64,000 nt of DNA, from the IMG/VR virus record IMGVR_UViG_3300049448_000340, positions 16,219 to 80,218 of that record. One strand, written 5' to 3'. Positions within the stretch are counted from its first letter, which is position 1, and each line of letters starts with the position of its first letter. Shown here one piece after another: positions 1 to 64,000 of the stretch. Both the position numbers and the translations under genes were made by a program. Under the pieces are notes generated by a model. It saw nothing but the letters and a program-made list of their open reading frames with translations, had not been told where the DNA came from and searched no databases. This DNA comes from a virus.

Positions 1-891
1 CACTCAGGCGGTCTACATGTGGTGGACAACGTCCACTTCATGAACCGGGAGCTCAAGCAGCGCATCTCGGACGAGCTATGTCGAGTGACCACTGAGCCCA
101 ACCCGCACATCGAAATGCGAAAGTACTTCACGAACACTGACGAGCTGAGGTTTCCTGTAAGAGCGGCATTTGCGTTCACAGCCATCCAGCCTCCATTCCT
201 CAATGAGGACTTGATCCAAAGGTCGGTCACTTTCAAGACAGCCTTTGTCGAGCGAGAGCCTGAAGGGGATTGGGTCACGGACACCCTGGAGGAAAGAGGC
301 GGGAGGGAAGCTTGGGTCGCACACCACCTGGTGTTCCTGCATCTCTTCCTGAAACAAGTGTGGGAACCAGACTTCCGAACGCAACACCGGCTAGCCCATC
401 TCGAACAAGCTCTGACAGTAGCATCCCGCGTGCTCGACTTAGACAACTTATCGCAAGAGGTCTTCGCGGACTACCACGAACATATGTCGGTGATAGGCCA
501 GGTCGATCCTACCAAGGACGTAACACCAGCGCCTATTGAGATCCAACAGTTAGTACCTCCATCGCCACCCCCGGGTCAAGTATTCGGTCAGACGCTCCTG
601 CGAAACCAAGCAACACAGATTGCAGCAACGGACTGGGTGCTCCAGGGGATCAGAGACTTCTTAGCCCACAGATTCCCCAATCTCCAGGGCGAGTCAGAAC
701 GGTTTGGTGCGGGAGACGTTTCTGATTGGTGCATGGGTCAGGATGAGTACCAGGACAATGAGATCCTCACTAACTCCCGCAAGCTTGGGAAGTACATGTC
801 TGATAGGATCTCGACCTTGAGTATGGTCCTAAATATCAGGTCAGCTGGTTCGTTCCAGAACAAACAGACCTATCGCCAACACAGCAGGTGA
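1..891 (+). CDS. C-terminal part of a phage replication ATPase (primase/SF3-helicase-like), cut by the window edge
   Basis: The reading frame is open from base 1, so the gene begins outside the window. The visible part starts just before a Walker B-like strand (LHVVDNV). It continues with a block (ISDELCRVTT, then RKYFTNTDELRFPVRA, then DLIQRSV) that resembles the sensor region of the P-loop ATPases that follow primase domains in many phages and plasmids. In those proteins the ATPase acts as a replicative helicase or helicase loader. The last 120 residues show no motif I know. The stop overlaps the start of the next gene. The family call rests on this partial motif pattern; the Walker A loop is not visible. 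Confidence 0.6.
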   Translation, partial: HSGGLHVVDNVHFMNRELKQRISDELCRVTTEPNPHIEMRKYFTNTDELRFPVRAAFAFTAIQPPFLNEDLIQRSVTFKTAFVEREPEGDWVTDTLEERGGREAWVAHHLVFLHLFLKQVWEPDFRTQHRLAHLEQALTVASRVLDLDNLSQEVFADYHEHMSVIGQVDPTKDVTPAPIEIQQLVPPSPPPGQVFGQTLLRNQATQIAATDWVLQGIRDFLAHRFPNLQGESERFGAGDVSDWCMGQDEYQDNEILTNSRKLGKYMSDRISTLSMVLNIRSAGSFQNKQTYRQHSR

Positions 892-35503: not shown

Positions 35504-36055
35504 TTATGCTCCATCACCAGTAACGGTAAATGTTGAAGTAGAGAAGACAGACACACCCAAGTATGAATTCTGTCCGAAGGTCTTGGTAAACGAATGTGGG
35601 TTTGCAGCAAACGTTGCGCCACCACCTGCAGACACTGTTACTTGACCTCCTGCGGTAGTTTGCAACAGGGCGATGTTGCATCCTACAACAAGGGACGAAG
35701 GAACGGTCACTGCGACTGGCGACGAATTGGTGAACTTAACTGTTGTGCCACAGTCTGCAGCAGCCAGGGTATAAGTAGTACCCGACTGGGTCGTGACTGT
35801 CCCTATGACAGTCCCGAAAGTATTCGTGCCGGACCAGGTATTGTTGCCCGACGAAGAGGGAGCTGCCGTACAGGTGAAGATCCCAGTGCCTGCCAGTGCT
35901 GAGGCAAAGCTCCCAGCGGAACAAGTGAATACCAGTACCGGACTTACCTTCTGGACTGTCTGGGCTAACAGAGCCCCGACAAGGCCTACCGACAGCAGGC
36001 CGGCAATTACGATGGCACGAAGCCGAAGCTTGGGCTTTCCCGTTCCCGTTCTCAT
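35504..36055 (-). CDS. Membrane-anchored or secreted fibre-like protein
   Basis: ATG 36055 overlaps the upstream stop (ATGA). A basic start (RTGTGKPKLRLR) and a hydrophobic AIVIAGLLSVGLVGALLA form a signal peptide or anchor. The rest has TTYTLAAADCGTTVKFTNSSPVAVTVPS, which resembles a segment of the neighbouring fibre gene (TSYTVLYTDAGKIVVFNNASPVAVAL), so the two share a domain. Four cysteines are present. It may be a fibre-domain duplicate rerouted to the envelope. Confidence 0.6.
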   Translation of the reverse strand: MRTGTGKPKLRLRAIVIAGLLSVGLVGALLAQTVQKVSPVLVFTCSAGSFASALAGTGIFTCTAAPSSSGNNTWSGTNTFGTVIGTVTTQSGTTYTLAAADCGTTVKFTNSSPVAVTVPSSLVVGCNIALLQTTAGGQVTVSAGGGATFAANPHSFTKTFGQNSYLGVSVFSTSTFTVTGDGA

Positions 36056-36843
36056 GTCAGAGTCCATCCGCCTTGGGATTGCGTTACGACCCACGTGCCG
36101 GCTGCGTGGCATTCAAGCATTATGAACCACCCCTTGGTGTTCCCCTCGATAGTACCTCCTGGAGCACTATCCGAACCAGACCAGGTTATTACGTCTGTGC
36201 CGTTGGCGGCGAAGCGTAGAATCTGGTTCACGATGACAGAGAGGCCGTAGTTGAGTCCGATCACTGCAGCAGGAAGCGATCCGATGACTGTCCCTCCGGC
36301 TCCTACGTTTGTGTAGCGGGTTCCGCTCTCTCCGGCCGAAACAGAGAAGTTAGCTGTCTTAGCGACTACCGGGACAGTAGTGGCTGTGCTTCCCGCAGCT
36401 CCTCTGATAGCGAAGTAGTTGACACCATCCGAGTGGATGGTCGCCCCTTGGTTCTGTTGTAGAATTAGGGTGGCTGCCCCATTGATAGTCGAGGGGCCTG
36501 CTGCCGTAATTGTGGCTGCTCCCACTCCGATGTTGATCACCCACAGCTTCGAATCCGGCGGCATGAAGATACCGCTGGAAGAGTTAGCTGCAGCCAGAGC
36601 TACTGCGACCGGGGACGCATTGTTGAAGACAACGATCTTGCCAGCGTCCGTGTACAGGACGGTGTAGGAGGTGCCTGCCGTCGTGATGACAGGGGTGCCA
36701 TCAACCTGATGGCCTCCAAGCAGAGTTCCATCACCGACGAACAAGCGGTCGAGGTCTTGATCAACGAGGAGCTCGCCGTCATTGGGCACGAGGGCCAGAC
36801 GAGCAGCAGAACCTCCACGCCTAAAGTCAATTTTGCCTGGCAT
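36052..36843 (-). CDS. Tail fibre protein
   Basis: The N terminus (KIDFRRGGSAARLALVPNDGELLVDQDLDRLFVGDG) matches the short phage fibre entry domain in which a beta hairpin RRGT... is followed by GEL..DTD...L.vGDG. The rest is beta-rich (GKIVVFNNASPVAVAL, then TITAAGPSTINGAATL), ending AAGTWVVTQSQGGW, typical of fibre tips. It overlaps the tail hub gene stop (ATGA), in the usual fibre position after the tip genes. It probably takes part in host recognition. Confidence 0.72.
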   Translation of the reverse strand: MPGKIDFRRGGSAARLALVPNDGELLVDQDLDRLFVGDGTLLGGHQVDGTPVITTAGTSYTVLYTDAGKIVVFNNASPVAVALAAANSSSGIFMPPDSKLWVINIGVGAATITAAGPSTINGAATLILQQNQGATIHSDGVNYFAIRGAAGSTATTVPVVAKTANFSVSAGESGTRYTNVGAGGTVIGSLPAAVIGLNYGLSVIVNQILRFAANGTDVITWSGSDSAPGGTIEGNTKGWFIMLECHAAGTWVVTQSQGGWTLT

Positions 36844-40776: not shown

Positions 40777-41445
40777 TTACCGTTTGTCGCTACGGAATTT
40801 GCAGGACTGCAGAGTCCACATGTGGTGCATGAACTGTTCGAAGTCTTGAATGTCCTCGATGAACCTGCAGTAGTAATAGTACGAGTAGTCCATGGTGATG
40901 ACTACGCCATCAGACACCGGAGTTGTGAATACTACGTTGATCAAGTCGGAGTCGATGTCCCAGTTTGCAGGGTCGTCCAATACGCCATCGAGGTACACGT
41001 TCATAGGCTGTAGGAGGTTAGCTCCTCCGACAGGCTCAATGAACCAGGTGCTCCAAGTCCTCATCAAACGGAACGTTGTACGAGTGCCATCGCCTGTCGC
41101 GATGTGCTGATTCAGTCGGCGGTTGTCTTTCGGGTTGTTGTAGAAGAACCTTCCATACTGGCCTCGGCAGGCTACGAACAAGCCCGAGATCTCTTGGAGC
41201 TCCTTCATGCCTGCGACAAAGTGACCGGTATCCTTATCGACGTTCTGTGTCTCGTCCGCCAAGAGCTCGAACGTAATCTCGAACTCCCAAAGCGGATAGG
41301 CTTGCCTAGCAGAAATCTGCTCGACGCCTTTAACTGTAGTCTGTACTATCGAGGCATAGGTTGGCTTAACGTGAACAGAGAAGCCTGGCCTCAAGGTAGG
41401 AAAAACCGGAGTCGGTGTGGGATAAGTGAACGCCATTACGGCCAC
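40777..41445 (-). CDS. Tail tip protein with DUF2460 domain, GTA gp12-like (copy 1)
   Basis: FSVHVKPTYASIVQTTVKGVEQISARQAYPLWEFEITFELL, then GLFVACRGQYGRFFYNNPKDN, then TFRLMRTW and CRFIEDIQDFEQFMHHMW match the DUF2460 layout (P.w.F.l.y..l, then G....F...dp.d). The family is the distal tail protein partner of GTA gp12. A second, longer copy lies directly upstream with the same motifs (41436-42707). Confidence 0.8.
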   Translation of the reverse strand: MAVMAFTYPTPTPVFPTLRPGFSVHVKPTYASIVQTTVKGVEQISARQAYPLWEFEITFELLADETQNVDKDTGHFVAGMKELQEISGLFVACRGQYGRFFYNNPKDNRRLNQHIATGDGTRTTFRLMRTWSTWFIEPVGGANLLQPMNVYLDGVLDDPANWDIDSDLINVVFTTPVSDGVVITMDYSYYYYCRFIEDIQDFEQFMHHMWTLQSCKFRSDKR

Positions 41446-42707
41446 CAGTCAACGATGAGATTTGCATCACCGGGCCTAAAGGGATTACCTCCGTATGCGT
41501 CGTTTGCTGCAGGGAAGATGTTACCTCCTCCAAGTCCCGTCGTACCGTCGCACCTGATCTCCATATGCATGGTCAACGGGCTGAGAGGGTTTATCTTGGC
41601 TGAAGGAATGTCAGTCCTACCTCTTGTGACCTCCAAGAACTGAGTTGTGTCGGTGATATCCATATCGATGTGGATTTCTATCGGAGGATCGATACAGTTG
41701 GTGAACACAACCCTCATATAGCAGGCTGTAATGTTGTAAGTGGTCACGATAAACTTTGTGAAGTAAGTCCTACAGGTGACTCGGAAGGACCCTGTATCGG
41801 GTACCTGTATATTACCTGAGACAACCGTGAATAGGTTGCTCGGGAACCCTGTATCAACATCAGGCCTCTGGAACTGCCAGCCGTTGGCTACATATGGAGC
41901 TCCGATGGCCGTGCCAAGATCTGGTGCGTATAGCCATACCTCTTGAGTTGGAGGAGGATCAGTTTGGGGCGTCGTGATAATCGGATCTTCATCCGGGATA
42001 TGCTTTGGAAGGAAGATTGTACTCCCAGGTGGAGGAGGTGGGTCAGGCAAAGTACTCCTGAACTTCAAGGAAGGAACACGCCACCAACCGTAGGCGAACT
42101 CCTCTAAGTCGAGCATATCCTCGATGAAGCGACAGTAGTAGAAGAACGAGAAGTCGGCTGTAATCTCGACTCCCGGTGCAGGAGGATTTACGAACTTAAG
42201 AGTACGGAGGTCTGTATCGATCCACCAGTTGTTTGGCTGTAAGACGATAACCCCGTTGAAGTACACGTTGAAGGTTTTGCCTACCCGGACATCTGCAATG
42301 CCGATAGGCTCGACGATGGCGTAAGGAGCAAACCCCCAAGTCCTGCTTAGCACAAAATCCTTAACAACTCCGTCACCTGAGCCTATGAGCTGCCCGACGC
42401 GAGAGTTGTCGTCTGGGTCCTGGTAGATGAAGGTTCCGTATTGCCCGTTCAACAGAAGCCAGAACTCAGACAGAGTCTGCATCTCTGTGTATCCCAGCAC
42501 GTCTGAGAACGGAGAAGGATTTTTGCCCTCGTCCCTCAGGACCTCATACGTTAGTTCGAACTCCCACAGTGGATAGGGCATCTGATAGTTGGTCACCTCT
42601 CGCCCTGAAGGAGGTGAGCTCACTATCGAAGCGAACGTGGGCTTCTTGTGCACAGAGAAGCCTACATGGATCAGAGGCTCGGCCGGGAAGAGAGGGATAT
42701 CGGTCAT
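41436..42707 (-). CDS. Tail tip protein with DUF2460 domain plus extra C-terminal domain (copy 2)
   Basis: The first 215 residues repeat the layout of the next gene: FSVHKKPTFASIVSSPPSG, YPLWEFELTYEVL, LNGQYGTFIYQDPDDNSRVGQLIGSGDG, FVLSRTW and FYYCRFIEDMLDLEEF. A proline linker (DPPPPPGS) then leads to a 190-residue beta-rich domain (GNIQVPDTGSFRVTCRTYF, CYMRVVFTNC) not present in copy 1. A tandem duplication with one copy gaining a possible carbohydrate-binding or decoration domain is the simplest reading. Confidence 0.78.
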   Translation of the reverse strand: MTDIPLFPAEPLIHVGFSVHKKPTFASIVSSPPSGREVTNYQMPYPLWEFELTYEVLRDEGKNPSPFSDVLGYTEMQTLSEFWLLLNGQYGTFIYQDPDDNSRVGQLIGSGDGVVKDFVLSRTWGFAPYAIVEPIGIADVRVGKTFNVYFNGVIVLQPNNWWIDTDLRTLKFVNPPAPGVEITADFSFFYYCRFIEDMLDLEEFAYGWWRVPSLKFRSTLPDPPPPPGSTIFLPKHIPDEDPIITTPQTDPPPTQEVWLYAPDLGTAIGAPYVANGWQFQRPDVDTGFPSNLFTVVSGNIQVPDTGSFRVTCRTYFTKFIVTTYNITACYMRVVFTNCIDPPIEIHIDMDITDTTQFLEVTRGRTDIPSAKINPLSPLTMHMEIRCDGTTGLGGGNIFPAANDAYGGNPFRPGDANLIVDWWP

Positions 42708-53726: not shown

Positions 53727-56700
53727 TTAGTTCCGGGTGACCAGAACGGGGTTGCGCTGGGCTGCCTTGATCAGCTCGAGGGCTCGTGTCTGCGGATCGA
53801 GGCCATCAAGATAGCGCTTCACCATCTCGGGCGTATCGACGTTGCCGGCACTCGGGACCGAACCCCTCCCCGAATACGAGATGGTTGTATCGCCTCCCTT
53901 CTCGACCGCAACGACGCCGGGCATGATCCGCTTGACTCCGCGAGCAGGCTCGGGCATCTTCTCGAGGTCCTTCACCCGATTGACGAGCTCCTGAACCTGG
54001 CCGGTCAGGTTGCCCATGACGCGTTTCAGGACGATGTTTTCCTCCGCCATCTTCGACAGAGCGCCTTCGCCGAAACCCATCGACTTCTCGAACGACCCGA
54101 TCTCCTCGTCGGTCGACCGCAGGAGGACTCCCTTCGACATTGCGCAGTCGGCTCCGAGATCTGCCATCCCGTCGTGGATCTTCTTCAGTGAGCTGCGCGT
54201 CGAGGTTGATAGGGCTGCACCAGCCTTCGACACCCACTTGTCGACATCGGCATCCATGCAGACATCGCCGTCGGTCATCGCAGAGACATGGTCGTGGGCT
54301 GCCTGCAGATGCATCCGGTTGACCTGGCCGAGACGCCGGCCGACCTTCTCGAGGGCATCGATGAGCCGTACTGCAGGGCTCTTCTTATACTGGAAGCCCT
54401 TCTTCTTGGCTTCCTCCTCGGCCTCCTCCTCGGCCTTGCCGACTGCCTTGTCGAGCAGACCATGCAGATAGGAGGCATTCGGCCCGACGGCGGCTCGAGT
54501 CAAGACGACAAGTGCTGTTCCCTGGTCGCCGTAGTCGCCCATGTCCTCGGTGCCCATGACGAGCTCGGAGGTCTCTTCCTCGACGAGCCGACGTAGGAAC
54601 ATGCAGAGGTTCGAGATGTTGCGCTCGAGCTCGGCGGCCATCGGCGAATTGTCACCTTCGCGAATCGCCTCTAGTGCGAGGCATTCCTTGATGTCGTAGA
54701 GGCGGAGGATCGAGCAGGCAACCTCGCCGACATCATAGAGGTGCTTGGAGATGCAGCTGCCCATCGTCTCGAGCAGTTCGATGCCCTTCATCGTCGAGGC
54801 ATCGGGAGGTCCTTCCTTGCTGACCTTCTCGAGCCAGGCTTCGCTGATCGCCTTGCGAACCTGCATCAGCTGTAACTGGGTGTACTTGCCGATATTGCGA
54901 GGCATCTGCATGAACGTCCAAGATGCCTGAACATGAGCCGACGTGTCCAGCGGATAGAGGCTTTTTCCGCCCTTCAGGAGGCCTGGATCGGCATACGGGA
55001 CGTTGCCATGTGGCTTCAACTGCTTCTCGAGCTGCTCGTCATTGAGAGCCTTCTCGGCGGCCGACCACGCTTGGGCAAAAGCCTTCTGCTCGTCGCCGCT
55101 CTCCTTGTAGACGCTGTTCCAGACATGCATCCACTGGCGCTGCTTATTGGCACTCGTGAAGTGCTCCTTGACGGCCGCCGGAAGTTCGTCGACTGAATTG
55201 TAGACCTTGCCGAGCGGAATCATCCCGGAACGGGTCTGTTGGCCGGCCACAGCTGCCTGCCAGGCCTTGTCGAATGCCTGGGCGTCGGAGATTTTGACGG
55301 TACCTCCATCGACGGAGTCGAGAGCCTCGCGGAGGCTCGCCATCGCTGCGTCTGCAGGAGCTGTCAGCTCCTTCATCATCTGCTGACGATCTAGCTCCTG
55401 ATTCCAGGCTACGGCGTCCGCTTTCTTCGCAAAGGGTTTATTGTCCTTCGCAAGCCAGTATTGCCGAAGGCCTGGATTGAGATCCGCCGGAGGAGTTTCC
55501 GTACCACCGGTCCCGTCGGCACTTTTGGATACACCGGGTTGTCCTCCACCCGGGCTTCCGGAGCCTTGATCGCTGTTGACGCCACCGGCGCTATTGTCAG
55601 GATTGCCCTCGCGGGTCTTCGGCTCGTGCTCGTGGGCGCCGGATTCGTGTTCCTTGTTCGTTGCGCCCGGATCGACTGCTGTCGCATCACGGCGCCAATT
55701 CGGCTCGCCGTTGCCGGTTCCCGACGAGCCGGTCATGCTGGGCAGATCGGGAACGTGACCGGATGTTCTGGCGATCGCTGCCGCTTCAGCCGTAGCTGAC
55801 TCTTCGCGACCCGGCTGATGCATTGCCTTCTTGATTTCCTCGAGGACGGACGCCTGGACGTTGGTCGGCAAGGTCCAGAAGGCTTCGATCTGCTCCTTGC
55901 TGAGGCCACTCTCAGCGAGGGTCTTCTCGGCCTTCTCCTTATCTTCGTCAGCGCCCTTATCCTTGGCGTCCTCTTCCTTGTCCTTCTCCTGCATGAATGG
56001 CGGGAGCTTCTTATCCTTGTCGTCTTCTCCGCCGGCCTTATTCAGGTCGTCGGCAGCGGCTTCCTTTGACAGTTCGGCGTCGAGCTGACCGGAATGAAGC
56101 TTTTGGAAGGCTTCCTGCACTCCCTGCTCGTTATCGACAGTCACGAACGAACGGATCTCGACCTCGGGAACCGGACCGACCGACTTGATCAGCTGGAAGG
56201 TTGCCGTCGGGAGGCAGGGGATATCGACGAGGCTCAGTTCGATCGGATCGGCGATGTAACGCGTCAGGCGGGGGTTGGCAGAGTCGGTCCAGCGCTTGAC
56301 ATAGCCGCCGCCTTGGCTGAAACCGGTGTAGACGCCTTCCTGGACCTTCAACCAGTCCTGGTCGTCGACGATCTTGGCGCACACCTCGATCTGCTTGAGG
56401 CTATCGTTGAAGTGTAGCTCCTTCAGGACGCCCGCAGCCGACTTGCCGTGCATGGCCCGGACGTTGCCGAGGGACTTGCCATCCGAGGCCTTGGCGATGT
56501 CAGCCGACCACTTCTCGTAGTACGGCTTGGTGCCATCATAGTCGCAGATCTCGCCTGCTCGATCCGGCACCTCCGCGGTAGCCAAGCCGTACACCAGACG
56601 GTTGACCGCATCCACCTTGGTGATGGGCAGAAACATCCGAAGATCGTTGCCTTGCATTGTCCCGTCCCTCTTTTCCAAGGCTGCCAGCGGCAGGCCAGCT

Positions 56701-56900
56701 TTCTCGACATCGAAACGCAGGTCCAACTGGAAATAGTCGGACACCCCATCAGGGGAAATTGGACCTTCAACTAGGTCACAGCCTCCAGGAGCACGATACA
56801 TGGTGCAAATGTAGCACCTCATGGCAGTCCAATTCGGGGACTGCGGCATATACCGCGCCTGGGCCTGTGAAATCTTCTCTTTCGTTGGAGCCGTTTGCAT
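53727..56900 (-). CDS. Prohead protease-like polyprotein with ChaB domain
   Basis: The 1057-residue product has a protease-like region at about 85-250 (LVYGLATAEVPDRAGEICDY, NVRAMHGKSAAGVLKELHF, TGFSQGGGYVKRW, LSLVDIPC), fitting the XkdF/S78-type prohead protease group with a candidate histidine in the MHGKSA segment. A Lys/Glu/Asp-rich helical stretch follows (about 270-370), then a Gly/Ser linker, a ChaB-like domain at about 565-635 (YNSVDELPAAVKEHFTSANK, WNSVYKESGDEQKAFAQAWSAAE in parts) and a helical C-terminal half. It probably combines protease, scaffold and internal functions. No ribosome site precedes ATG 56900. Confidence 0.72.
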   Translation of the reverse strand: MQTAPTKEKISQAQARYMPQSPNWTAMRCYICTMYRAPGGCDLVEGPISPDGVSDYFQLDLRFDVEKAGLPLAALEKRDGTMQGNDLRMFLPITKVDAVNRLVYGLATAEVPDRAGEICDYDGTKPYYEKWSADIAKASDGKSLGNVRAMHGKSAAGVLKELHFNDSLKQIEVCAKIVDDQDWLKVQEGVYTGFSQGGGYVKRWTDSANPRLTRYIADPIELSLVDIPCLPTATFQLIKSVGPVPEVEIRSFVTVDNEQGVQEAFQKLHSGQLDAELSKEAAADDLNKAGGEDDKDKKLPPFMQEKDKEEDAKDKGADEDKEKAEKTLAESGLSKEQIEAFWTLPTNVQASVLEEIKKAMHQPGREESATAEAAAIARTSGHVPDLPSMTGSSGTGNGEPNWRRDATAVDPGATNKEHESGAHEHEPKTREGNPDNSAGGVNSDQGSGSPGGGQPGVSKSADGTGGTETPPADLNPGLRQYWLAKDNKPFAKKADAVAWNQELDRQQMMKELTAPADAAMASLREALDSVDGGTVKISDAQAFDKAWQAAVAGQQTRSGMIPLGKVYNSVDELPAAVKEHFTSANKQRQWMHVWNSVYKESGDEQKAFAQAWSAAEKALNDEQLEKQLKPHGNVPYADPGLLKGGKSLYPLDTSAHVQASWTFMQMPRNIGKYTQLQLMQVRKAISEAWLEKVSKEGPPDASTMKGIELLETMGSCISKHLYDVGEVACSILRLYDIKECLALEAIREGDNSPMAAELERNISNLCMFLRRLVEEETSELVMGTEDMGDYGDQGTALVVLTRAAVGPNASYLHGLLDKAVGKAEEEAEEEAKKKGFQYKKSPAVRLIDALEKVGRRLGQVNRMHLQAAHDHVSAMTDGDVCMDADVDKWVSKAGAALSTSTRSSLKKIHDGMADLGADCAMSKGVLLRSTDEEIGSFEKSMGFGEGALSKMAEENIVLKRVMGNLTGQVQELVNRVKDLEKMPEPARGVKRIMPGVVAVEKGGDTTISYSGRGSVPSAGNVDTPEMVKRYLDGLDPQTRALELIKAAQRNPVLVTRN

Positions 56901-56939
56901 GTTGAACTATATTGACGTCACTGTAGTGAGTAGGGGCAA

Positions 56940-56985
56940 GTACGGTCTGGTGTGGCTTTGGCGAGCGGAGAGGACCAGACCGTAC
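56940..56985 (-). promoter_or_regulatory. Perfect 12-pair hairpin between virion genes
   Basis: GTACGGTCTGGT (56940-56951) and ACCAGACCGTAC (56974-56985) are exact complements around a 22-base loop, between the Ig-domain gene and the protease polyprotein gene. No T tract. As with the hairpin after the capsid gene, the next start is TAGTTCAACATG with no ribosome site. Confidence 0.68.
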
Positions 56986-56999
56986 CTGCTAGTCGAGCT

Positions 57000-57020
57000 A
57001 CCGGCTGGCTGCTAGCCGGT
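57000..57020 (-). promoter_or_regulatory. Hairpin at the stop codon of the Ig-domain gene
   Basis: ACCGGCT (57000-57006) pairs with AGCCGGT (57014-57020). On the minus strand the TAG stop (57014-57012) begins inside the 5' arm. Same type as the hairpins at 9189, 17962 and 18630. Confidence 0.55.
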
Positions 57021-57800
57021 CACCTCGACAGCGTTCGACGGCGGAGCTTTGGTCCTGCCGGCGCTGTTGGCCGCTTCAACGGTGCAGGTGATGCTCTTGC
57101 CTACGTCCTTGCTCTGGACAACATAGTCCGGACCTTCGGCAATGGTCTCCTCGAGACCCCCGCCCTTGCTCTTCCAGTCGTAAGCGTAACTGGTTGGCTC
57201 ACCTTCCCAGTTGCCCATCGTGCAGCTGAGAGTCTCGCCGACCGTGCCGGTCCCGGAGACGTACGGGACGTCGATATTCACAGGGGCGCCGAGCACCGGT
57301 TCGACCGGGGGTTCGGTCCCGCCCGGGCCCTGATCGGCCGGTACCTCGTAGATCGGAACGCCAGTATCCGACTGAGATGCAGCTCGTTCCCAATTCTCAG
57401 TGGCCATCCGATTGCCGATCGTAGCGTCGATTACGGCGCCTTGGACGACTGGAGACTCACCCGGGGCGAGTATACGGTCGGCATGCTGACCCGTACGTAG
57501 ACGCATCTCCATGTCCAACGCGTCCGCGGCCGCCGATTCCGAACGGATGCTCTGGATACCCGGGCCTGCGCCGGAGACCGCGGTCGTCGCGATTTCCTCA
57601 GCAAAGTCGAGTCCATAGGTGGCCTTCATCTCGAGGATGTCGGTGCTGCGCACGTCATGGACGATGCCGTCGCCGTCGGCCTTGTAGAGGCGTGCTGTCG
57701 AGGTCCAGAATTCCTGACCGGGATGATGGGCCTTCATATCGATCGTCGGAATCAGTGCAGGCCGAAGGGCTCGCTGGTCATCGGGTTGAATTTCGGGCAT
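57012..57800 (-). CDS. Virion protein with C-terminal Ig-like domain
   Basis: TTGGAGGAAGT precedes ATG 57800. Residues 1-160 (PTIDMKAHHPGQEFWTSTARLYKADGDGIVHDVRSTDI) are unfamiliar and include helices. Residues about 170-262 (VPYVSGTGTVGETLSCTMGNWEG, YAYDWKS, SITCTVEAANSAGRTKAP) are an Ig-like domain of the kind found on phage surface proteins, with two cysteines in disulfide places. G/C-ending codons. It could be a head decoration protein next to the portal. Confidence 0.65.
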   Translation of the reverse strand: MPEIQPDDQRALRPALIPTIDMKAHHPGQEFWTSTARLYKADGDGIVHDVRSTDILEMKATYGLDFAEEIATTAVSGAGPGIQSIRSESAAADALDMEMRLRTGQHADRILAPGESPVVQGAVIDATIGNRMATENWERAASQSDTGVPIYEVPADQGPGGTEPPVEPVLGAPVNIDVPYVSGTGTVGETLSCTMGNWEGEPTSYAYDWKSKGGGLEETIAEGPDYVVQSKDVGKSITCTVEAANSAGRTKAPPSNAVEVTG

Positions 57801-57840
57801 GTTACTTCCTCCAAGTGGTTGTTGTAGGTCCTGGGACGCT

Positions 57841-59580
57841 TCACCTGAACCGCATCAGAGAGCCCACTGCCGCAGCTGTTGTCTGCGGGGTCTCATCCGA
57901 CACGTATTCCAACCGACCCTTCTGCTTCCGGCGACGAATGCCGTCGTGCAGACCGTCAGCATTGAGGTCTTCGAACTCGATAGGCCAGGGAGCATAGCCC
58001 GACTGAGAGGCCTCCTCGTTGACGGCCTTGTCGAACATCGTCTGAGATATGAGCACCTTCTCAGCCGGCTTTGCATCCTGAGATTGCTTGTCTTCTTCCT
58101 TCGGAACAATAGTACTGTCGCTCTGTTGACCAACGACGTTCTGAGCTCCTGGATCGCCTGAGGCTGCTAGCCTCGCAGCCGCGTCCGGGCTCGTAAACGT
58201 CGTAATCGGGATGTAGCCCTGCTTCGTCAGGACCATCGGCGTTGAAAATGGGCCTCCTAAAGGCTCCTTGCCCAGATGCAGACGGACATCGTCGATCGCG
58301 AGGACTCCGGCCTTCGCATAGCCAGTGTCGATCTCCATCGCAGTCTTCGGATCCTGCTCTCGGATCTCAACGAACTTGAACTCCAGATCGGGCGACTTGA
58401 AGTCTTCTACGATAATACGGTCCATGACCGTCTTCACGTAGGACTGATTCGGCTCTAAACCGGCCTCGAGAGCTCGAGTGTTCGACTTCTCGACAACGCC
58501 TCGACTGACGTGCTCGATGAACGGATCCGGAGCAATGGCGAAGGTAAAGCAGATGACTCGCGCCAGGTACTCGTCGAAGATGTCTTTTAGCGGAGGAGAC
58601 TTGGTCTCCTGGTACTTGAACTCCCCGGGGACCATACGAAGGCGGCGTCTGGTTGCCAGATTCCCTGAGAGGAGGGCATCCATCCAGTCTTGGAAGTCCT
58701 TGATCTGCTGGAGGTTCCACTCCTTTGGGAGCCCCATGAAAGCGTCGGGCTGCGATCCCTCGGTGTAGTAGGAGAGTTGGAATAGTGTACGACGGATGGC
58801 CGTGTTGATCGTGACGATGATCTGCTCGACCTTCGAATAGCCGTACATGTCGTGTGTACGGTAGTTCCAGGGGAGGTAGAGCAGCTCTTCCGTCGTGAAG
58901 TCTGCTGCTGGAATACCGTGCAGAATCTGCTGGTATGCAGGATCGGGAGGCATCGGCCTGCGACCGTCTGCAGCCAACAGGGGCTTGATCGTCGCTCCAT
59001 CGATCAGCTCGAGGGCGTACAGCGTGCCGTCACGAGCACGTCTGCGCCATATCGAGGCTGCGTCGATGACGAAGACATCCTCCATCCACGCTTTGAGCCA
59101 CTGATCCCAAGGCAGCTCGCGGTCGGGATATTGAAGGAAGTCCGTGATCGTCTTGATCCGATCTTTTGTCTCCTGAGGGAGCTTTGGATTGGCATCTGCT
59201 CCTTGCTTGGCCCAGAGCTTAGGGTCGCCTCTACCTGCTTCCCTCGGTCGGATGGTCCAGTCCAGAGACGACATCTGGTCCTTACGGGACTCTAACGCAA
59301 TCCGAACCAGGTCGCAATTATCTGCCAGAGCTCGCAAGACACCGAAGGAAACCGGCTCGTTTGAGCGAGGATTATAGTTGAGGTTGACGCCCGTCGGGTA
59401 ATCGTACCGACGGCCTTTGACTCCCTCCTGGTCCTGAGGAGCCATTGGGGCTAATGGTTGCATCGGGCCGAACCATGTCGTAGGTTCGACTCCGGTAATC
59501 ACATACCGAGCAACTTGCGTGGCTCTCCTAGCCATACCGGCTAAAGACGTCACTCTTGCTCCAGGAGGGATTGCTGCCAC
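57841..59580 (-). CDS. Portal protein
   Basis: The 579-residue protein begins helical and has NEPVSFGVLRALADNCDLVRIALESRKDQM, WLKAWMEDVFVIDAASIWRRRARDGTLYALELIDGATIKPL, LLYLPWNYRTHDMYGYSKVEQIIVTIN and the later SYVKTVMDRIIVEDFKSPDLEFKF, a portal pattern (the YG.S..e...... helix is typical). It is the first gene after promoter P5. GTG 59580 is the likely start, with AAGG upstream. It forms the 12-fold DNA entry ring. Confidence 0.88.
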   Translation of the reverse strand: MAAIPPGARVTSLAGMARRATQVARYVITGVEPTTWFGPMQPLAPMAPQDQEGVKGRRYDYPTGVNLNYNPRSNEPVSFGVLRALADNCDLVRIALESRKDQMSSLDWTIRPREAGRGDPKLWAKQGADANPKLPQETKDRIKTITDFLQYPDRELPWDQWLKAWMEDVFVIDAASIWRRRARDGTLYALELIDGATIKPLLAADGRRPMPPDPAYQQILHGIPAADFTTEELLYLPWNYRTHDMYGYSKVEQIIVTINTAIRRTLFQLSYYTEGSQPDAFMGLPKEWNLQQIKDFQDWMDALLSGNLATRRRLRMVPGEFKYQETKSPPLKDIFDEYLARVICFTFAIAPDPFIEHVSRGVVEKSNTRALEAGLEPNQSYVKTVMDRIIVEDFKSPDLEFKFVEIREQDPKTAMEIDTGYAKAGVLAIDDVRLHLGKEPLGGPFSTPMVLTKQGYIPITTFTSPDAAARLAASGDPGAQNVVGQQSDSTIVPKEEDKQSQDAKPAEKVLISQTMFDKAVNEEASQSGYAPWPIEFEDLNADGLHDGIRRRKQKGRLEYVSDETPQTTAAAVGSLMRFR

Positions 59581-59630
59581 TACCTAAGCCTTACCCTTCA
59601 GCTCAGTGTTGTTAGGACCTATTCTGGTAT

Positions 59631-59660
59631 ATTATGAAACACGTTCCTCTTGGACCTCAA
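59631..59660 (-). promoter_or_regulatory. Promoter P5, the minus-strand member of the family
   Basis: On the minus strand TTGAGG (59660-59655), 18 bases starting TCCAAGAGGAAC, and CATAAT (59636-59631). The -35 hexamer is identical to P2's and the spacer shares the AGGAAC core. It is positioned to drive the portal, head and tail genes. A GACCATAATTTAACC block, also seen as GACCATAATTTTACC near P1, lies at about 59678-59692. Confidence 0.75.
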
Positions 59661-59702
59661 GAGAAATCTTTAGAGCGACCATAATTTAACCATCCGAGGC
59701 AT

Positions 59703-60359
59703 TTAGAACCGATATATGCCCCAGAATGTGTTCCGGCTGACCTCCTCTCCGACGACAAAGGGGTCCATCATACCCTCCCGGACAACCTGGTAAGAGATCT
59801 CGTGGAGGAGGTTGCGGATGTCGATACCGTCATCCTCCCACATCATCATTGGCTCGGCTTCTACCGGGACGACTCTTCGTCGTTCGTTCACGACGAATAG
59901 GCAGCCGTCACGCTTCTGCAAAGCCAAAGCTATCTGCTTTATGTCATCTTCGGGATTCAGGCAGTGCTGGAGAACCCACACAGCCAATGCGATATCGAAG
60001 GCTCCTCCGTCCAAGTTGACTAGGTTGAGGTACTCAGGAGAGCACGTAGCAAACCTGTTATCCTTGACATAGTCGACCGCCAGAGCCCGCATCGTATAGC
60101 TGATGTCTACGCCAAGAACATAGGCGTCATAGGCCTCGATCATGGCCTTAGACATCCTACCAATGCCACAGCCGTAATCGAGTACGCGGGTATCCAGTCC
60201 TTGAGGAGAGCACTGTTGAAATATCAGCCTGCTGAGGTACGGAGTCTCCCTCTCCCAGCGCTCGTCTGTTGTCTGACCTGACTGGGGAGTCAGGATGACA
60301 GCTTTCGCCTGCTGCTGGTTTCGGACGTTGTAGACCCCCGGGAAGTAAGTACGGATCAT
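59703..60359 (-). CDS. SAM-dependent methyltransferase
   Basis: RVLDYGCGIGRMSKAMIE (about residues 59-76) is class I motif I, VLGVDIS is the acidic end of strand 2, and FDIALAVWVLQHCL is the motif IV/V region. No base-flipping DNA methylase motif (such as PPY) is present, so it resembles small-molecule or sugar methyltransferases. It follows a TPR/glycosyltransferase gene with four-base overlap, suggesting a shared task. It lies between terminase and portal, upstream of P5. Confidence 0.75.
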   Translation of the reverse strand: MIRTYFPGVYNVRNQQQAKAVILTPQSGQTTDERWERETPYLSRLIFQQCSPQGLDTRVLDYGCGIGRMSKAMIEAYDAYVLGVDISYTMRALAVDYVKDNRFATCSPEYLNLVNLDGGAFDIALAVWVLQHCLNPEDDIKQIALALQKRDGCLFVVNERRRVVPVEAEPMMMWEDDGIDIRNLLHEISYQVVREGMMDPFVVGEEVSRNTFWGIYRF

Positions 60360-61711
60360 GGCTGCACCTTCTTCCCGAGTTCCCGCATCAGGCGGGTACG
60401 TACATTATCGACGACTGGACCCCAGTCATTCCACCTCTTTTGCCGGACTAAGGTGACCGAGGGATACCACGGAGTCTTCTCGCCTGATGCACCCCAGGGC
60501 CAGTAGGGCTCCTTACAGAGCATCACGTACGTGGGTACACCGAGAGTTCCTGCCAGATGAGCGATGGAGGTGCAGGAGGTCACAACTACGTCCATCTTCA
60601 TGATGGCAAGTGCCGTATGCGTCCACACATCCAGCTGGGGAGACAGGTCGTGGATGAATCGATCCATCCCGATCTCGGCTATCTCCGCCGATTGTGGCCC
60701 AACTTGCAGACTATAGAGCCAGAAGAACGGGCTGTCCGCCAGCGAGCATAATGTCTTGAGAGGAACCGAGCGATCCTTGTTGCGCGGGAAGTCAGGTCGA
60801 CCGGACCAGCAGAGACCGATCTTGAGAGCTGGCTTGACCTGAGGTTCGGGAATGTCAACCTTGATCGTATGATCAACCACGTCGGCTAGGACCCTGTTCC
60901 TAATTGTCTTTGACGGTCTGGGCACCTCGTTCAGGCTGAGGTTGAGAACTGCAGGTATCGTCCCGAGATGGACATGGTAGTCGGTTTTGACAATAGGGGC
61001 TCCGGCATGCAGGAGCTGAATCCCTCTATCCTGGAAGTCCCATAGGAGAGGAACCAGTTGGGGCACTGTTGAGAAATAGACAGACTCAGCGTTATCAAAG
61101 CATCCATGCTCGAGGAATCGGGAATACATGATCGTATCGCCAATACCTTGGTCGTGCAGGATCCTGATCGACCTGCCAGCCAAGGACTGCCCCACCCAGG
61201 GCTTACTCGGCAAGTCCCGCTCGATTTCGAAGAAGTCCTTCTCGATCCGCAAGTGGTAGTTCTTCCACCCCTTCTCGTAGTTTCCTACCAAAAGGTTCAG
61301 CAGGCTCAGATTCCATTTGGCGTCGCGTCTGTCCGGATCGATTTTCAGAGCCTCGGAGAAGGCCTTATCAGCCTCCCGGTATTTCCCCAGAGACATCTGG
61401 ACGTTGCCCATCGACAACAGGCCTGACACCCTACTCATGGGTTCAGGATGATGGTTGTAGTCCAGAGAGCGTTGAGCGCAGAGCAGAGCCTCATCGTAGG
61501 CTCCCATACCCCACATCACGGACGATAGGTTTGCCCACAGCTGGAAGTTCTCCGGGCTCGAGGATAGTGCTCGACACAAAGCTGCTTTGGCTCCGAAGAA
61601 CTTCTTCTCTTCGACCAGCTGAGATGCTAGTTTATTCGAGTTGGTTAGGGCCTGTTTGATCTTCTCGTCGGCATCGTCGGACAATTCGATGGTTTGCTGG
61701 TTGTTGCTCAC
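60356..61711 (-). CDS. TPR protein with glycosyltransferase-like C-terminal domain
   Basis: Residues about 15-165 form TPR repeats (AKAALCRALSSSPENFQLWANLSSVM, LLSMGNVQMSLGKYREADKAFSEALKIDPDRRDAKWNLSLLNL in parts). The C-terminal part (LKIGLCWSGRPDFPRNKDRSVPL, WLYSLQVGPQ, VVVTSCTSIAHLAGTLGVPTYVML, PWYPSVTLVRQ) resembles the GT-B (family 9/41-like) domain of bacterial TPR glycosyltransferases. It may glycosylate a virion or host-surface component, together with the methyltransferase next to it. GTG 61711 overlaps the upstream stop. Confidence 0.72.
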   Translation of the reverse strand: MSNNQQTIELSDDADEKIKQALTNSNKLASQLVEEKKFFGAKAALCRALSSSPENFQLWANLSSVMWGMGAYDEALLCAQRSLDYNHHPEPMSRVSGLLSMGNVQMSLGKYREADKAFSEALKIDPDRRDAKWNLSLLNLLVGNYEKGWKNYHLRIEKDFFEIERDLPSKPWVGQSLAGRSIRILHDQGIGDTIMYSRFLEHGCFDNAESVYFSTVPQLVPLLWDFQDRGIQLLHAGAPIVKTDYHVHLGTIPAVLNLSLNEVPRPSKTIRNRVLADVVDHTIKVDIPEPQVKPALKIGLCWSGRPDFPRNKDRSVPLKTLCSLADSPFFWLYSLQVGPQSAEIAEIGMDRFIHDLSPQLDVWTHTALAIMKMDVVVTSCTSIAHLAGTLGVPTYVMLCKEPYWPWGASGEKTPWYPSVTLVRQKRWNDWGPVVDNVRTRLMRELGKKVQP

Positions 61712-61941
61712 AGATAGATCCTTTCTTTACTCAGGTCGACACGGAGACCAGGGCCTTCCATGTCATCTTTTGCCCGATCAAACAACTCTTCGAGTCGATC
61801 GAGCTCCTCACCATCAGGACTCGTCTCGCTCAAAAGACTACGCCGGATGATTTTCCACGCCTCAGCGGCGAACTCGCTCCCCTTGAGCGACATTTCAACC
61901 ACGTCGACAACTAGTCTGGGATTTTCAGTGATAATACTCAT
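61708..61941 (-). CDS. Hypothetical small acidic helical protein
   Basis: 77 residues (VVDVVEMSLKGSEFAAEAWKIIRRSL, then EELDRLEELFDRAKDDM), mainly helical. Not recognised. It overlaps both neighbours (ATGA on each side). Confidence 0.5.
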   Translation of the reverse strand: MSIITENPRLVVDVVEMSLKGSEFAAEAWKIIRRSLLSETSPDGEELDRLEELFDRAKDDMEGPGLRVDLSKERIYL

Positions 61942-62573
61942 TGAGTCGCCAACTTTGCAGCTATCTCACGTGCAGTGCCCACTGCGGCTTGTTCAGCAAT
62001 CTCTTCTGGTGGCTGCGCCCACGCTAAATAGATCACCCCAACAAACGCAGTGTGGTGTGGTGGAATCGGAACAGCACATCCACGCCTCATGTTGCGCTCA
62101 AATAGGCGTCTGCTTAGAGGCCCCTTCTCTTCCGACAAATCAACACAGACCGGGCTACCTTCGAGTACTTGTACAAGTTTTCGCATATCTGAAGTGGTCA
62201 CGATAACAGGTAGACGGCGAGGATTTGGAATGACAGGACGTTCTCCATCGCGTCGCCTAGCTGCAATGAACTTTTGAGAATTGCTGCCTAGGTCAATCGA
62301 CCAAATCTGCACTAAATCGGCTCCAGTCTGCTCAACTAAATGGCTAAGTGCTTGCGGTATCTCGTGAGTCTTGAGCACAACCTGGTCAGGAGTCAACCAC
62401 GACTCGATAATCGCTTCACGATTCTCGTAGAGTACCCATCCAGTCCCTCCTATAATGAACAGCAGGATTACTACTGCCGCTTTCCAGGGAGAGTCAATAT
62501 ACCCCAGGATCTGGCTGATTATGCCAGCAATACCTCCAGGGGAGGGCTGTAGCGGAGCAGGAGGTTCGGTCAT
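61938..62573 (-). CDS. Single-pass membrane protein
   Basis: After a proline-rich start, AAVVILLFIIGGTGWVLYE (about residues 32-50) is a membrane segment. The soluble 150-residue part (ALSHLVEQTGADLVQIWSIDLGSN, FVGVIYLAW) resembles a GAF/PAS-like sensory or binding fold but has no catalytic motif. It sits directly after the terminase. It could be a lysis or exclusion protein, but nothing fixes this. No signal peptidase site seen. Confidence 0.58.
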   Translation of the reverse strand: MTEPPAPLQPSPGGIAGIISQILGYIDSPWKAAVVILLFIIGGTGWVLYENREAIIESWLTPDQVVLKTHEIPQALSHLVEQTGADLVQIWSIDLGSNSQKFIAARRRDGERPVIPNPRRLPVIVTTSDMRKLVQVLEGSPVCVDLSEEKGPLSRRLFERNMRRGCAVPIPPHHTAFVGVIYLAWAQPPEEIAEQAAVGTAREIAAKLATQ

Positions 62574-64000
62574 CGCTGGCCTGGGCGTTGTTCGGCTATT
62601 TCGGCCTCCATCTTGCGTACGCGAGACACTTCCTCCTGCATGTACGCAATGAAACCCGCTCCAACGACATGAGGACGTGCATGAGCAATGACAACCGCAT
62701 CGCCCTTATCAGGTGATCGTCCCAGTCGGGCTTTGACATGCTCCTTGGGCTCCACCAAAATCCCTCGGGGGGTTAGGGACCACAGAGGCGCAGTTAGATC
62801 AGCCAAGAGTCCCGGATCGGGTGGCAGAGCTAAGTCCTCTCCCAGGTCTGGATCAAGGGCTTCTCTGAATTTCCACCACCATTCCGCTCGAGAATTCGCG
62901 AAACCTAGCTTGCCAGAGCGATCTTTTGCGATGGACTTCTCTGACATGATCATCGGAATGATGTCCATCTGCATCATTTTGCCGATATCGACAGGAGCTG
63001 TGCCGACACCAGTTACGTCAATCTGAATGCGTCGCTTCGCAAACCCGTGATCGATCAGGAGCTGGATGATCTGGTTACCATCCTTGGTTTGTCTTCCAGG
63101 AACCGCTAAGAGATTGGCAAACCAGTTCTCTAATCTGTCGACGATGATGGTCTCATCCTTGCCACCACGTGACACGTCTACGCCAACAGCGCTCTCGCGT
63201 TCAGCAGTTGCTAGCCTGATCTGCAGTTCTTGATTGGTTTTTGGCGCAGGAGGTAGCTTCTTCGCGATGTTATGCTGTGTGATCGCGTAGGTGTCTGTCC
63301 CAGAGAATCCTAGGAGTGATTCTGGTATCGGGATGTCTTCTCCACCCTTGCGGCGGGGCAGATCCTCAGACGCGGGCCGACTGAATAGTGGCGGCGGGAG
63401 CCGTTGGTTGGACGCAGACGCCAGGTCTTCCGCTATTTCTGAGGCCTCCTCAGGTTTTTCCTCCTTGTCTATCTCCTCGTGGATCTTCTCCAGACGTGCT
63501 TTCTCTTGCTTCTCCAGGAATGCCTCAAAGGTGGAGGCCCATCTGGCTTGCGCCGCCAACACCCAGTCCGTCGGGATAACTTGCCATTCGTGATCTTCTT
63601 GACCGACACCGAAATCTCCTCTCAACATCCGTGAACGCAGGGGTTCTGGCAACCCCTGTAAGGTGCGCCGATACCCAGTCTCCATGAGTCTGGGGTTGTC
63701 TTCGACCCTTGCTCGGATGAAAGTGCGGGATTTTGGGTAAACTAAGTCGGTTTCTCCTCCCTCGTACGTGATTTCTACAGGATCGGGTCCGTCTACCTCC
63801 ATGTCTTCGCCATCAGGTCCGACGATGTACCAGCGTAACTCGCCCTGTTTTGCTGGGTTTGGATGCCTTGGGTCGAGCCATGGACCCCAGTACTTGATGA
63901 CCCACTGTCCTTGAGCATCAACAGGAGGATTCCCAGTCGCTATGATCCTCACCCGCTGTCTTTGGCGAGTCGTGCGATTCCAGGTGCCTAAGAACCGGTA
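62570..64000 (-). CDS. Terminase large subunit, cut by the window edge
   Basis: The frame is open to base 64000. The visible part includes GTWNRTTRQRQRVRIIATGNPP, a typical end of the ATPase domain (sensor-type ...TGNPP), then a nuclease domain: AVGVDVSRGGKDETIIV (first catalytic Asp), IQIDVTGVGT and GDAVVIAHA (last acidic residue). A Glu/Lys/Ala-rich insertion (residues about 140-200) separates them. It cuts the concatemer and drives packaging. GTG 63952 is not the true start; the gene continues beyond the window. Confidence 0.88.
   Translation of the reverse strand, partial: YRFLGTWNRTTRQRQRVRIIATGNPPVDAQGQWVIKYWGPWLDPRHPNPAKQGELRWYIVGPDGEDMEVDGPDPVEITYEGGETDLVYPKSRTFIRARVEDNPRLMETGYRRTLQGLPEPLRSRMLRGDFGVGQEDHEWQVIPTDWVLAAQARWASTFEAFLEKQEKARLEKIHEEIDKEEKPEEASEIAEDLASASNQRLPPPLFSRPASEDLPRRKGGEDIPIPESLLGFSGTDTYAITQHNIAKKLPPAPKTNQELQIRLATAERESAVGVDVSRGGKDETIIVDRLENWFANLLAVPGRQTKDGNQIIQLLIDHGFAKRRIQIDVTGVGTAPVDIGKMMQMDIIPMIMSEKSIAKDRSGKLGFANSRAEWWWKFREALDPDLGEDLALPPDPGLLADLTAPLWSLTPRGILVEPKEHVKARLGRSPDKGDAVVIAHARPHVVGAGFIAYMQEEVSRVRKMEAEIAEQRPGQR

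What the first reader, a model, noticed from the sequence alone, without database searches (positions are those of the whole stretch)
59703..61711. Glycosyltransferase-methyltransferase pair between terminase and portal
A TPR/GT-B-like protein and a SAM methyltransferase overlap by four bases inside the packaging region, where such genes do not belong. They may decorate virion or host-surface sugars.
Basis: partly seen in the sequence, partly recalled or inferred. Interest (0 to 1): 0.5.

Follow-up and report, generated by a model that had tools for sequence, protein, structure and literature searches.

The report
Phage protein-glycosylation gene pair beside portal
A phage carries, among its capsid and packaging genes, a two-gene cassette (a sugar transferase with a protein-gripping arm, and a methyltransferase) that most likely attaches and caps sugars on one of its own virion proteins; unrelated phages carry the same pair.

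Summary
A 451-aa TPR plus GT-B protein (60356-61711, -) overlaps a 218-aa SAM methyltransferase (59703-60359, -) by ATGA, in a chain of four 4-base overlaps that starts at terL. Three relatives read terL-s77-portal; ours reads terL-mem-s77-GT-MT-portal, so GT-MT is an inserted cassette, and not a one-off. The GT falls in a supported branch that holds only viral TPR-GTs. The MT family lies within 3.5 kb of a TPR-GT in 19 of 45 non-redundant viral copies, and one contig encodes both as one protein. The GT domain folds like GT9 heptosyltransferases, including the protein O-heptosyltransferase TibC; the TPR plus GT-B layout is that of FlmG and OGT. Phage TPR-GTs recur in virion-morphogenesis modules, so the position is not misplaced. 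Best reading: cytoplasmic O-glycosylation of a Ser/Thr-rich virion protein, the sugar then methylated. Favoured substrate: a 1381-aa, 28% Ser/Thr, 20-residue-repeat protein encoded just upstream of terL. Such repeats occur in 7 of 18 loci with this GT type against 2 of 86 other viral loci (kinship not corrected). Donor, substrate and chemistry are inferred.

The parts
60356..61711 (-). TPR-GT: 451-aa protein, N-terminal TPR domain (about residues 12-164) and C-terminal GT9-type GT-B domain (about residues 165-451); invariant Asp192 in a GxGD motif
61220..61678 (-). TPR helical region (residues 12-164) of the TPR-GT, proposed protein-binding arm
60359..61219 (-). GT-B catalytic domain (residues 165-451)
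59703..60359 (-). MT: 218-aa class I SAM methyltransferase of a phage family (A4) with conserved DYGCGIGR, GVDIS, WVLQH and TFW motifs
61708..61941 (-). s77: 77-aa protein with homologues in the terL-portal gap of three relatives; marks the probable ancestral order terL-s77-portal
61938..62573 (-). mem: 211-aa protein with one hydrophobic stretch, PHROG 31287; apparently a separate addition between terL and s77
62570..64000 (-). terL, large terminase subunit, cut by the record's end (684 aa complete in L008:7088-9142)
59581..59702 (.). 122-base gap between MT stop and portal start
57841..59580 (-). portal protein

Best explanation
GT-MT is a mobile virion-modification cassette. During late expression, the TPR domain of the GT binds a phage virion protein in the cytoplasm. 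The GT9-type GT-B domain transfers a sugar from a host nucleotide-sugar donor (ADP-heptose or similar) to Ser/Thr of that protein, and MT then methylates the sugar, so the particle carries capped glycans. The favoured substrate in this phage is the Ser/Thr-rich 20-residue-repeat protein encoded just upstream of terL; in sister phages it would be a similar repeat protein and/or the Thr/Ser-rich F1 protein encoded between GT and MT. Shown here: gene anatomy, insertion site, predicted folds, the viral branch, recurrence of the pair, one fusion, co-occurrence with the repeat proteins. Inferred: late timing, protein as acceptor, O-linkage, donor, sugar as the methylation target, order of reactions, substrate.
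For: Coupled to terL through four 4-base overlaps. The window GT and 13 other viral rows (12 of the L105-L117 set plus L120) form a branch with 99% SH-aLRT support; 25 of 26 bacterial rows fall in another starred branch, together with 17 other viral rows. MT homologue within 3.5 kb and on the same strand as a TPR-GT in 19 of 45 non-redundant viral copies (L105 and L113 hold two copies each); 13 of 22 among those over 200 bits. MT::TPR-GT fusion in one 640-aa ORF, L242:5479-7401. F1 (24-29% Ser+Thr in 11 copies) is the next same-strand gene after the GT in 10 of 13 GT-seeded loci and the second in one more; two of these loci (L109, L110) are near-identical. TPR-GTs sit in capsid/tail modules. 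Nearest folds for the GT domain: 3tov GT9 Z 17.8 (rmsd 3.4, 254 aligned), WaaF 1psw Z 17.4 (248), TibC 4rap Z 16.6 (250); OGT 5djs spans both domains (Z 17.5, 338 aligned, rmsd 11.2). 20-residue-period proteins: 7 of 18 such GT loci against 2 of 86 other viral loci (Fisher 4.4e-5). The repeat protein has the highest Ser+Thr content (28%) of 95 ORFs of the phage. Precedents seen as passages: FlmG, whose TPR domain binds the substrate (PMC7591256); TibC heptosylates Ser of autotransporters (PMC4358343); mycobacteriophages glycosylate capsid and tail tube (PMC12363180).
Against: No sugar, donor or substrate is shown. F1 is absent from the window's record, and the repeat protein is not in that record but on another contig of the same phage. 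The repeat count is not corrected for relatedness, its cut-offs were set after seeing some of the proteins, and 11 of 18 loci lack a detected repeat protein (some are cut short). L188, a terL/portal relative without the pair, has a period-40 ORF (554 aa, 12% Ser+Thr), one of the two control hits. 26 of 45 MT copies have no TPR-GT within reach. Sequence profiles of the GT domain reach no solved structure of a glycosyltransferase, so the GT9 link is by fold alone. The MT fold is generic and resembles small-molecule and protein methyltransferases alike. TibC modified Ser but not Thr in the passage read. No PF01370 epimerase in the record, so the donor would have to come from the host.
Confidence: 0.6

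Rival explanations
1. The pair modifies the host envelope (LPS or another surface glycan) late in infection, blocking re-adsorption or superinfection.
For: GT9 enzymes of this fold (WaaC, WaaF) build LPS core (fold match, function recalled); glycosyltransferases of temperate phages modify host serotypes (PMC12619734 passage).
Against: A TPR domain suggests a protein acceptor; the GT has no obvious membrane segment (highest 19-residue hydropathy 1.37); the genes are coupled to terL, and TPR-GTs recur in morphogenesis modules in several lineages.
Confidence: 0.13
2. MT methylates a virion protein directly (N-terminus or side chain) and the GT acts separately; the two are neighbours because both modify virion proteins.
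For: The model resembles protein N-terminal methyltransferases about as well as others (NRMT2 6kdr Z 18.3, top hit MccD Z 19.3); MT occurs without a TPR-GT in 26 of 45 copies, and in L222 stands two genes before a 20-residue-repeat protein.
Against: The MT::GT fusion and the frequent proximity favour successive steps.
Confidence: 0.15
3. GT and MT hypermodify phage DNA bases.
For: Phage DNA glucosyltransferases also have GT-B folds (recalled).
Against: No thymidylate-synthase-type enzyme (PF00303) in the 80-kb record, which is not the whole genome; TPR domain; position among structural genes; nearest folds of the catalytic half are GT9 and OGT/SPY.
Confidence: 0.04
4. A recently acquired, non-functional moron at the terL/portal module boundary.
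For: Clean insertion relative to L184-L186, and absent from 9 of 9 other related records searched whole, several of them fragments.
Against: Both frames intact, invariant residues kept, translational coupling, GT and MT identical in three IMG/VR contigs.
Confidence: 0.05

Closest known systems
FlmG, Caulobacter flagellin O-glycosyltransferase (PMC7591256, passages)
   Same: N-terminal TPR domain plus C-terminal GT-B domain in one soluble protein; cytoplasmic protein O-glycosylation.
   Different: Cellular; flagellin target; pseudaminic acid donor made by host pathway genes; the word methyltransferase does not occur in that paper's main text. FlmG's sequence was not compared here.
Bacterial autotransporter heptosyltransferases (TibC; PMC4358343, passages)
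   Same: GT9-like GT-B domain (Z 16.6 over 250 residues); an enzyme that modifies surface autotransporter proteins at Ser.
   Different: TibC has an N-terminal beta-barrel and a four-cysteine iron finger; ours has TPRs and no such cysteine cluster. No methyltransferase partner known to me (recalled).
Virion glycosylation of mycobacteriophages Che8, Corndog, Myrna (Freeman 2023, not held; known through a passage of PMC12363180)
   Same: Phage-encoded glycosyltransferases act on the phage's own capsid and tail tube.
   Different: Mycobacterial hosts; no TPR-GT is mentioned in the passages read; target here probably a repeat protein.
TPR glycosyltransferases of Azospirillum, Burkholderia and others ('tetratricopeptide repeat-containing glycosyltransferase family protein')
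   Same: Same domain order; about 26-33% identity.
   Different: 25 of 26 sampled bacterial rows lie outside the viral branch. In 80 bacterial loci no neighbour matched this MT by BLAST at E<=1e-4; three weak profile hits of 15-34 bits only.

Membership tests
TPR-containing GT-B glycosyltransferases | TPR repeats N-terminal to a GT-B catalytic domain in one chain | tested here: met
   (GT-B half by predicted fold)
TPR-containing GT-B glycosyltransferases | conserved catalytic-domain motifs (GxGD, TSxAHLAG, PWYPS, RQ) | tested here: met
   invariant or near-invariant columns in 51 rows; alignment
GT9 (heptosyltransferases) | fold of the catalytic domain | tested here: met
   3tov, 1psw, 4rap, 6dfe at Z 16.4-17.8
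GT9 (heptosyltransferases) | match to Pfam PF01075 or a GT9 structure by sequence | tested here: not met
   no PF01075 hit at E<=0.1; profile search of solved-structure sequences found no glycosyltransferase at E<=1
GT9 (heptosyltransferases) | ADP-heptose donor | not testable with these tools
   needs biochemistry
Bacterial autotransporter heptosyltransferases (TibC/AAH) | N-terminal beta-barrel and four-cysteine iron finger | tested here: not met
   TPR helices instead; cysteines at 46, 78, 204, 301, 322, 380, 399, no cluster of four; features as described for TibC
FlmG | TPR NTD plus GT-B CTD | tested here: met
FlmG | direct sequence orthology and flagellin target | not tested
   FlmG's sequence was not obtained; target needs experiment
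Class I SAM methyltransferases (Methyltransf_23/11) | Rossmann fold with glycine-rich SAM loop (DYGCGIGR here) | tested here: met
Phage virion glycosylation systems | glycan on virion protein that depends on the phage GT | not testable with these tools
   uncultivated phage, no particle
Phage virion glycosylation systems | GT encoded in or beside virion structural genes | tested here: met

The most novel reading that the evidence does not exclude
A mobile phage system of its own: a viral TPR heptosyltransferase-like enzyme and its methyltransferase (once seen as one fused polypeptide) that densely O-glycosylate and methyl-cap a 20-residue-repeat virion fibre, a phage counterpart, by convergence, of TibC acting on AIDA-type adhesins, moving between unrelated phages together with its repeat substrate.
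Probability: 0.3. Interest if true: 0.7.

Novelty: new variant of a known kind. Interest (0 to 1): 0.52.

Why it matters
It would extend protein O-glycosylation by TPR-GTs from bacterial flagellins to phage particles of (probably) alphaproteobacterial hosts, with a dedicated capping methyltransferase and a named candidate substrate. It predicts a methylated glycan on a specific virion protein, testable with three genes in a laboratory E. coli strain, and it offers an explanation for the recurrent position of TPR-GT genes in head/tail modules of environmental phages.

Tried and rejected
Rejected: 'misplaced' pair. Phage TPR-GTs recur in head/tail modules. The family scans count members without naming them. 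I took the six-member cluster of 540-587 aa before the GT for portals, and checked one member, L131, which matches solved portal proteins at 4.4e-68.

Rejected: donor made by the phage; no PF01370 epimerase in the record. This covers one family and an incomplete genome.

Tried: isolated-phage and plasmid homologues of MT: none at E<=1e-5 in 50,697 phage and 72,556 plasmid records.

Tried: sequence link of the GT domain to solved structures: one chance hit at E 0.88, no glycosyltransferase.

Tried: F1 in our phage: none by profile. My first family grouping put our repeat protein with those of sister phages partly through low complexity. A filtered comparison of nine repeat proteins gave E 5e-12 between ours and L220's, 6e-4 with L226's, and nothing at E<=1e-3 with the other six, so homology of the repeats is suggestive only.

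Tried: AU test of the viral branch, not finished. Before that tree, rows were de-duplicated at 85% identity (166 to 143), and the first 26 other-viral and first 26 bacterial rows were taken with the three annotated phage rows.

Limits: loci under 10 kb were dropped (one of 19 GT loci, L107); five of the GT loci (L218, L226, L227, L239, L242) were put in the group by profile score, not by the tree; the 86 controls include near-identical contigs; the cut-offs (z 6, 0.15) were set after I had seen some of the proteins; L114 (period 20, 0.19) did not pass.

Tried: literature. Listings of term searches for phage TPR glycosyltransferases with capsid and methyltransferase (none found) and with portal (10 of 15 listed), for capsid glycosylation, virion glycosylation and phage glycosylation showed no title or abstract opening on this pair. 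The library holds open-licence papers only.

Full report
OBSERVATION. The two ORFs are real and intact. The GT (60356-61711, -) starts GTG and MT (59703-60359, -) starts ATG inside the end of the GT gene (ATGA). The same kind of 4-base overlap joins terL/mem, mem/s77 and s77/GT (ATGA, ATGA, GTGA), so the whole run terL-mem-s77-GT-MT looks translationally coupled. terL and portal are confirmed by PHROG and Pfam profiles. The window is part of an 80,218-base uncultivated virus record. Three IMG/VR contigs carry identical GT and MT proteins, and one of them matches window 56001-64000 exactly at the DNA level and continues upstream of terL.

THE SITE. Three viral contigs share both our terL (573-600 bits) and our portal (509-553 bits), with only 237, 210 and 133 bases between the two genes. 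Those gaps encode homologues of our 77-aa s77 (shuffle z 9.4, 9.9 and 3.6 against ours; 8.9-16.9 among themselves). The ancestral order is therefore probably terL-s77-portal, and ours is terL-[mem]-s77-[GT-MT]-portal. Nine related records searched whole, several of them fragments, have neither GT nor MT (0 of 9; the tenth is our phage). GT-MT is thus most simply a two-gene insertion, and mem a separate one.

THE GLYCOSYLTRANSFERASE. TPR families hit within residues 32-146. An AlphaFold2 model from 51 sequences has pLDDT 94.3 and pTM 0.92. Its catalytic half matches GT9 enzymes: 3tov Z 17.8 (rmsd 3.4, 254 aligned), E. coli heptosyltransferase II 1psw Z 17.4, TibC 4rap Z 16.6 (250 aligned), WaaC 6dfe Z 16.4; the TPR half gives the other high rows. 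OGT and SPY match over both domains with large rmsd (5djs 338 aligned, rmsd 11.2). Asp192 of the GxGD motif is invariant in 51 rows; its equivalence to the catalytic aspartate of heptosyltransferases is recalled and was not superposed here. The GT9 link rests on fold only: PF01075 and PDB sequence searches are negative.

A VIRAL BRANCH. A scan of viral contigs with the family gave relatives at 33-38% identity (L105-L117), closer than the best 80 bacterial loci (26-33%). In a tree of 67 rows the window sits in a 14-row branch, all viral, with 99% SH-aLRT support; 25 of 26 bacterial rows fall in another starred branch with 17 other viral rows (quick method, midpoint root, clade test not finished).

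THE PAIR IS CONSERVED. In 8 of the 13 GT-seeded loci an MT of the same family lies two or three genes downstream on the same strand (directly downstream in ours). L107, L108 and L112 end within 2.4 kb after the GT; L116 and L117 have the room and lack it. Seeding with MT as well, 45 non-redundant viral MTs score at least 100 bits, and 19 of them have a TPR-GT within 3.5 kb on the same strand; among the 22 over 200 bits it is 13 (GT-seeded and MT-seeded loci pooled; L105 and L113 contribute two copies each). In L242 one 640-residue ORF holds MT (3-192) fused to TPR-GT (217-637), followed by F1. Where MT lacks this neighbour, 82 neighbour proteins from 29 loci include 4 PF01075 glycosyltransferases (the set holds TPR-GT neighbours of L252 and L253, so some of the four may be those), fibre proteins, portal and capsid proteins, a sulfotransferase and a carbamoyltransferase, but also DNA polymerases, nucleases and other unrelated genes.

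CONTEXT ELSEWHERE. In L110 the order is terL, capsid/protease, portal, further genes, then GT-F1-MT and a tail protein; in L106 it is protease, capsid, small genes, then GT-F1-MT. In a separate SU10-like lineage the TPR-GT ORF starts 4-8 bases inside the end of the preceding portal gene (L122, L127, L131, L151); the portal identity was checked on L131 (4.4e-68 to a solved portal) and its cluster-mates are 57-64% identical to it. Ten of 68 neighbour proteins match the SU10 portal model. A TPR-GT near the portal is therefore a recurring arrangement.

CANDIDATE SUBSTRATES. F1 (about 226 aa, 24-29% Ser+Thr in 11 copies) is the next same-strand gene after the GT in 10 of 13 loci and the second in L112; its one hit in the phage collection at E<=1e-3 is annotated as a tail collar fibre. 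Our phage lacks F1 but encodes, just upstream of terL on the overlapping contig (L008:2727-6872), a 1381-aa protein with a clear 20-residue period (41% self-match). It has the highest Ser+Thr content (28%) of 95 ORFs in a crude gene set. Proteins with a 20-residue (or 40-residue) period occur in 7 of 18 GT loci, 4 of 20 MT-only loci and 2 of 86 other viral loci of at least 10 kb (Fisher 4.4e-5 for the first against the last, not corrected for kinship). Our repeat protein aligns with L220's at E 5e-12 (22.6% over 398 residues, low-complexity filter on) and weakly with L226's, not with six others. Relatives without the pair (L184-L186) show no such protein among the ORFs before terL, but another, L188, has a period-40 ORF after its portal.

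MECHANISM. FlmG glycosylates flagellins in the cytoplasm, and its TPR domain binds the substrate (PMC7591256, passages). TibC adds heptose to serines of autotransporters (PMC4358343, passages). Mycobacteriophages glycosylate capsid and tail tube with their own enzymes (passages in PMC12363180 and PMC12619734), and a Rhodococcus phage paper reads a GT plus a methyltransferase as a sign that virions may be glycosylated (PMC13313380, passage); the primary paper is not held. Put together, the likeliest scheme is TPR capture of a Ser/Thr-rich virion protein, sugar transfer from a host donor, and methyl capping. Every chemical step, the donor and the substrate are inference.

HOST. The tail genes are of the gene-transfer-agent type (Rcc01698_C, phiJL001 Gp84, DUF2460; families, label recalled). 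The best portal hits among isolates are Brevundimonas phages, and Caulobacter phages are among the best 15 of 1,111 terL records. An alphaproteobacterial host is likely, not shown.

VERDICT. A real, recurrent and apparently mobile phage cassette; a new variant of virion/protein glycosylation systems rather than a new kind.

Noticed in passing
L008:2727-6872 (upstream of terL, outside the window record): 1381-aa protein made almost entirely of 20-residue Ser/Thr/Asp-rich repeats; the 80-kb record ends inside terL, just short of it.
   Followed up: partly
L242:5479-7401: Natural fusion of the methyltransferase and the TPR-glycosyltransferase in one 640-aa ORF.
   Followed up: yes
window 1-877 and L018, against L283/L284: The left end of the window's record overlaps the far end of contig G036 at 99-100% DNA identity, so the two contigs seem to cover one circular or permuted genome of roughly 99 kb (inferred, not assembled).
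   Followed up: no
window 36052-36843 (-): Mtd_N-like N-terminus (PF18454, just under cut-off) on a protein at the tail-fibre end: possible variable receptor-binding protein; no reverse transcriptase or template repeat was looked for.
   Followed up: no
window 40777-42707 (-): Two adjacent DUF2460 genes, 222 and 423 aa, in a gene-transfer-agent-like tail module.
   Followed up: no
window 57012-57800 (-): 262-aa protein with an Ig-like C-terminal part (weak Pfam, PHROG 12736 virion structural) directly after portal; another possible surface-exposed glycan acceptor.
   Followed up: no
L116:11179-12060: An MptE-like protein (PF01973) follows the TPR-GT where F1 usually lies.
   Followed up: no
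L222:9989-15785: MT family member without TPR-GT, two genes before a 1498-aa 20-residue-repeat protein, in a phage whose portal resembles ours (287 bits).
   Followed up: partly
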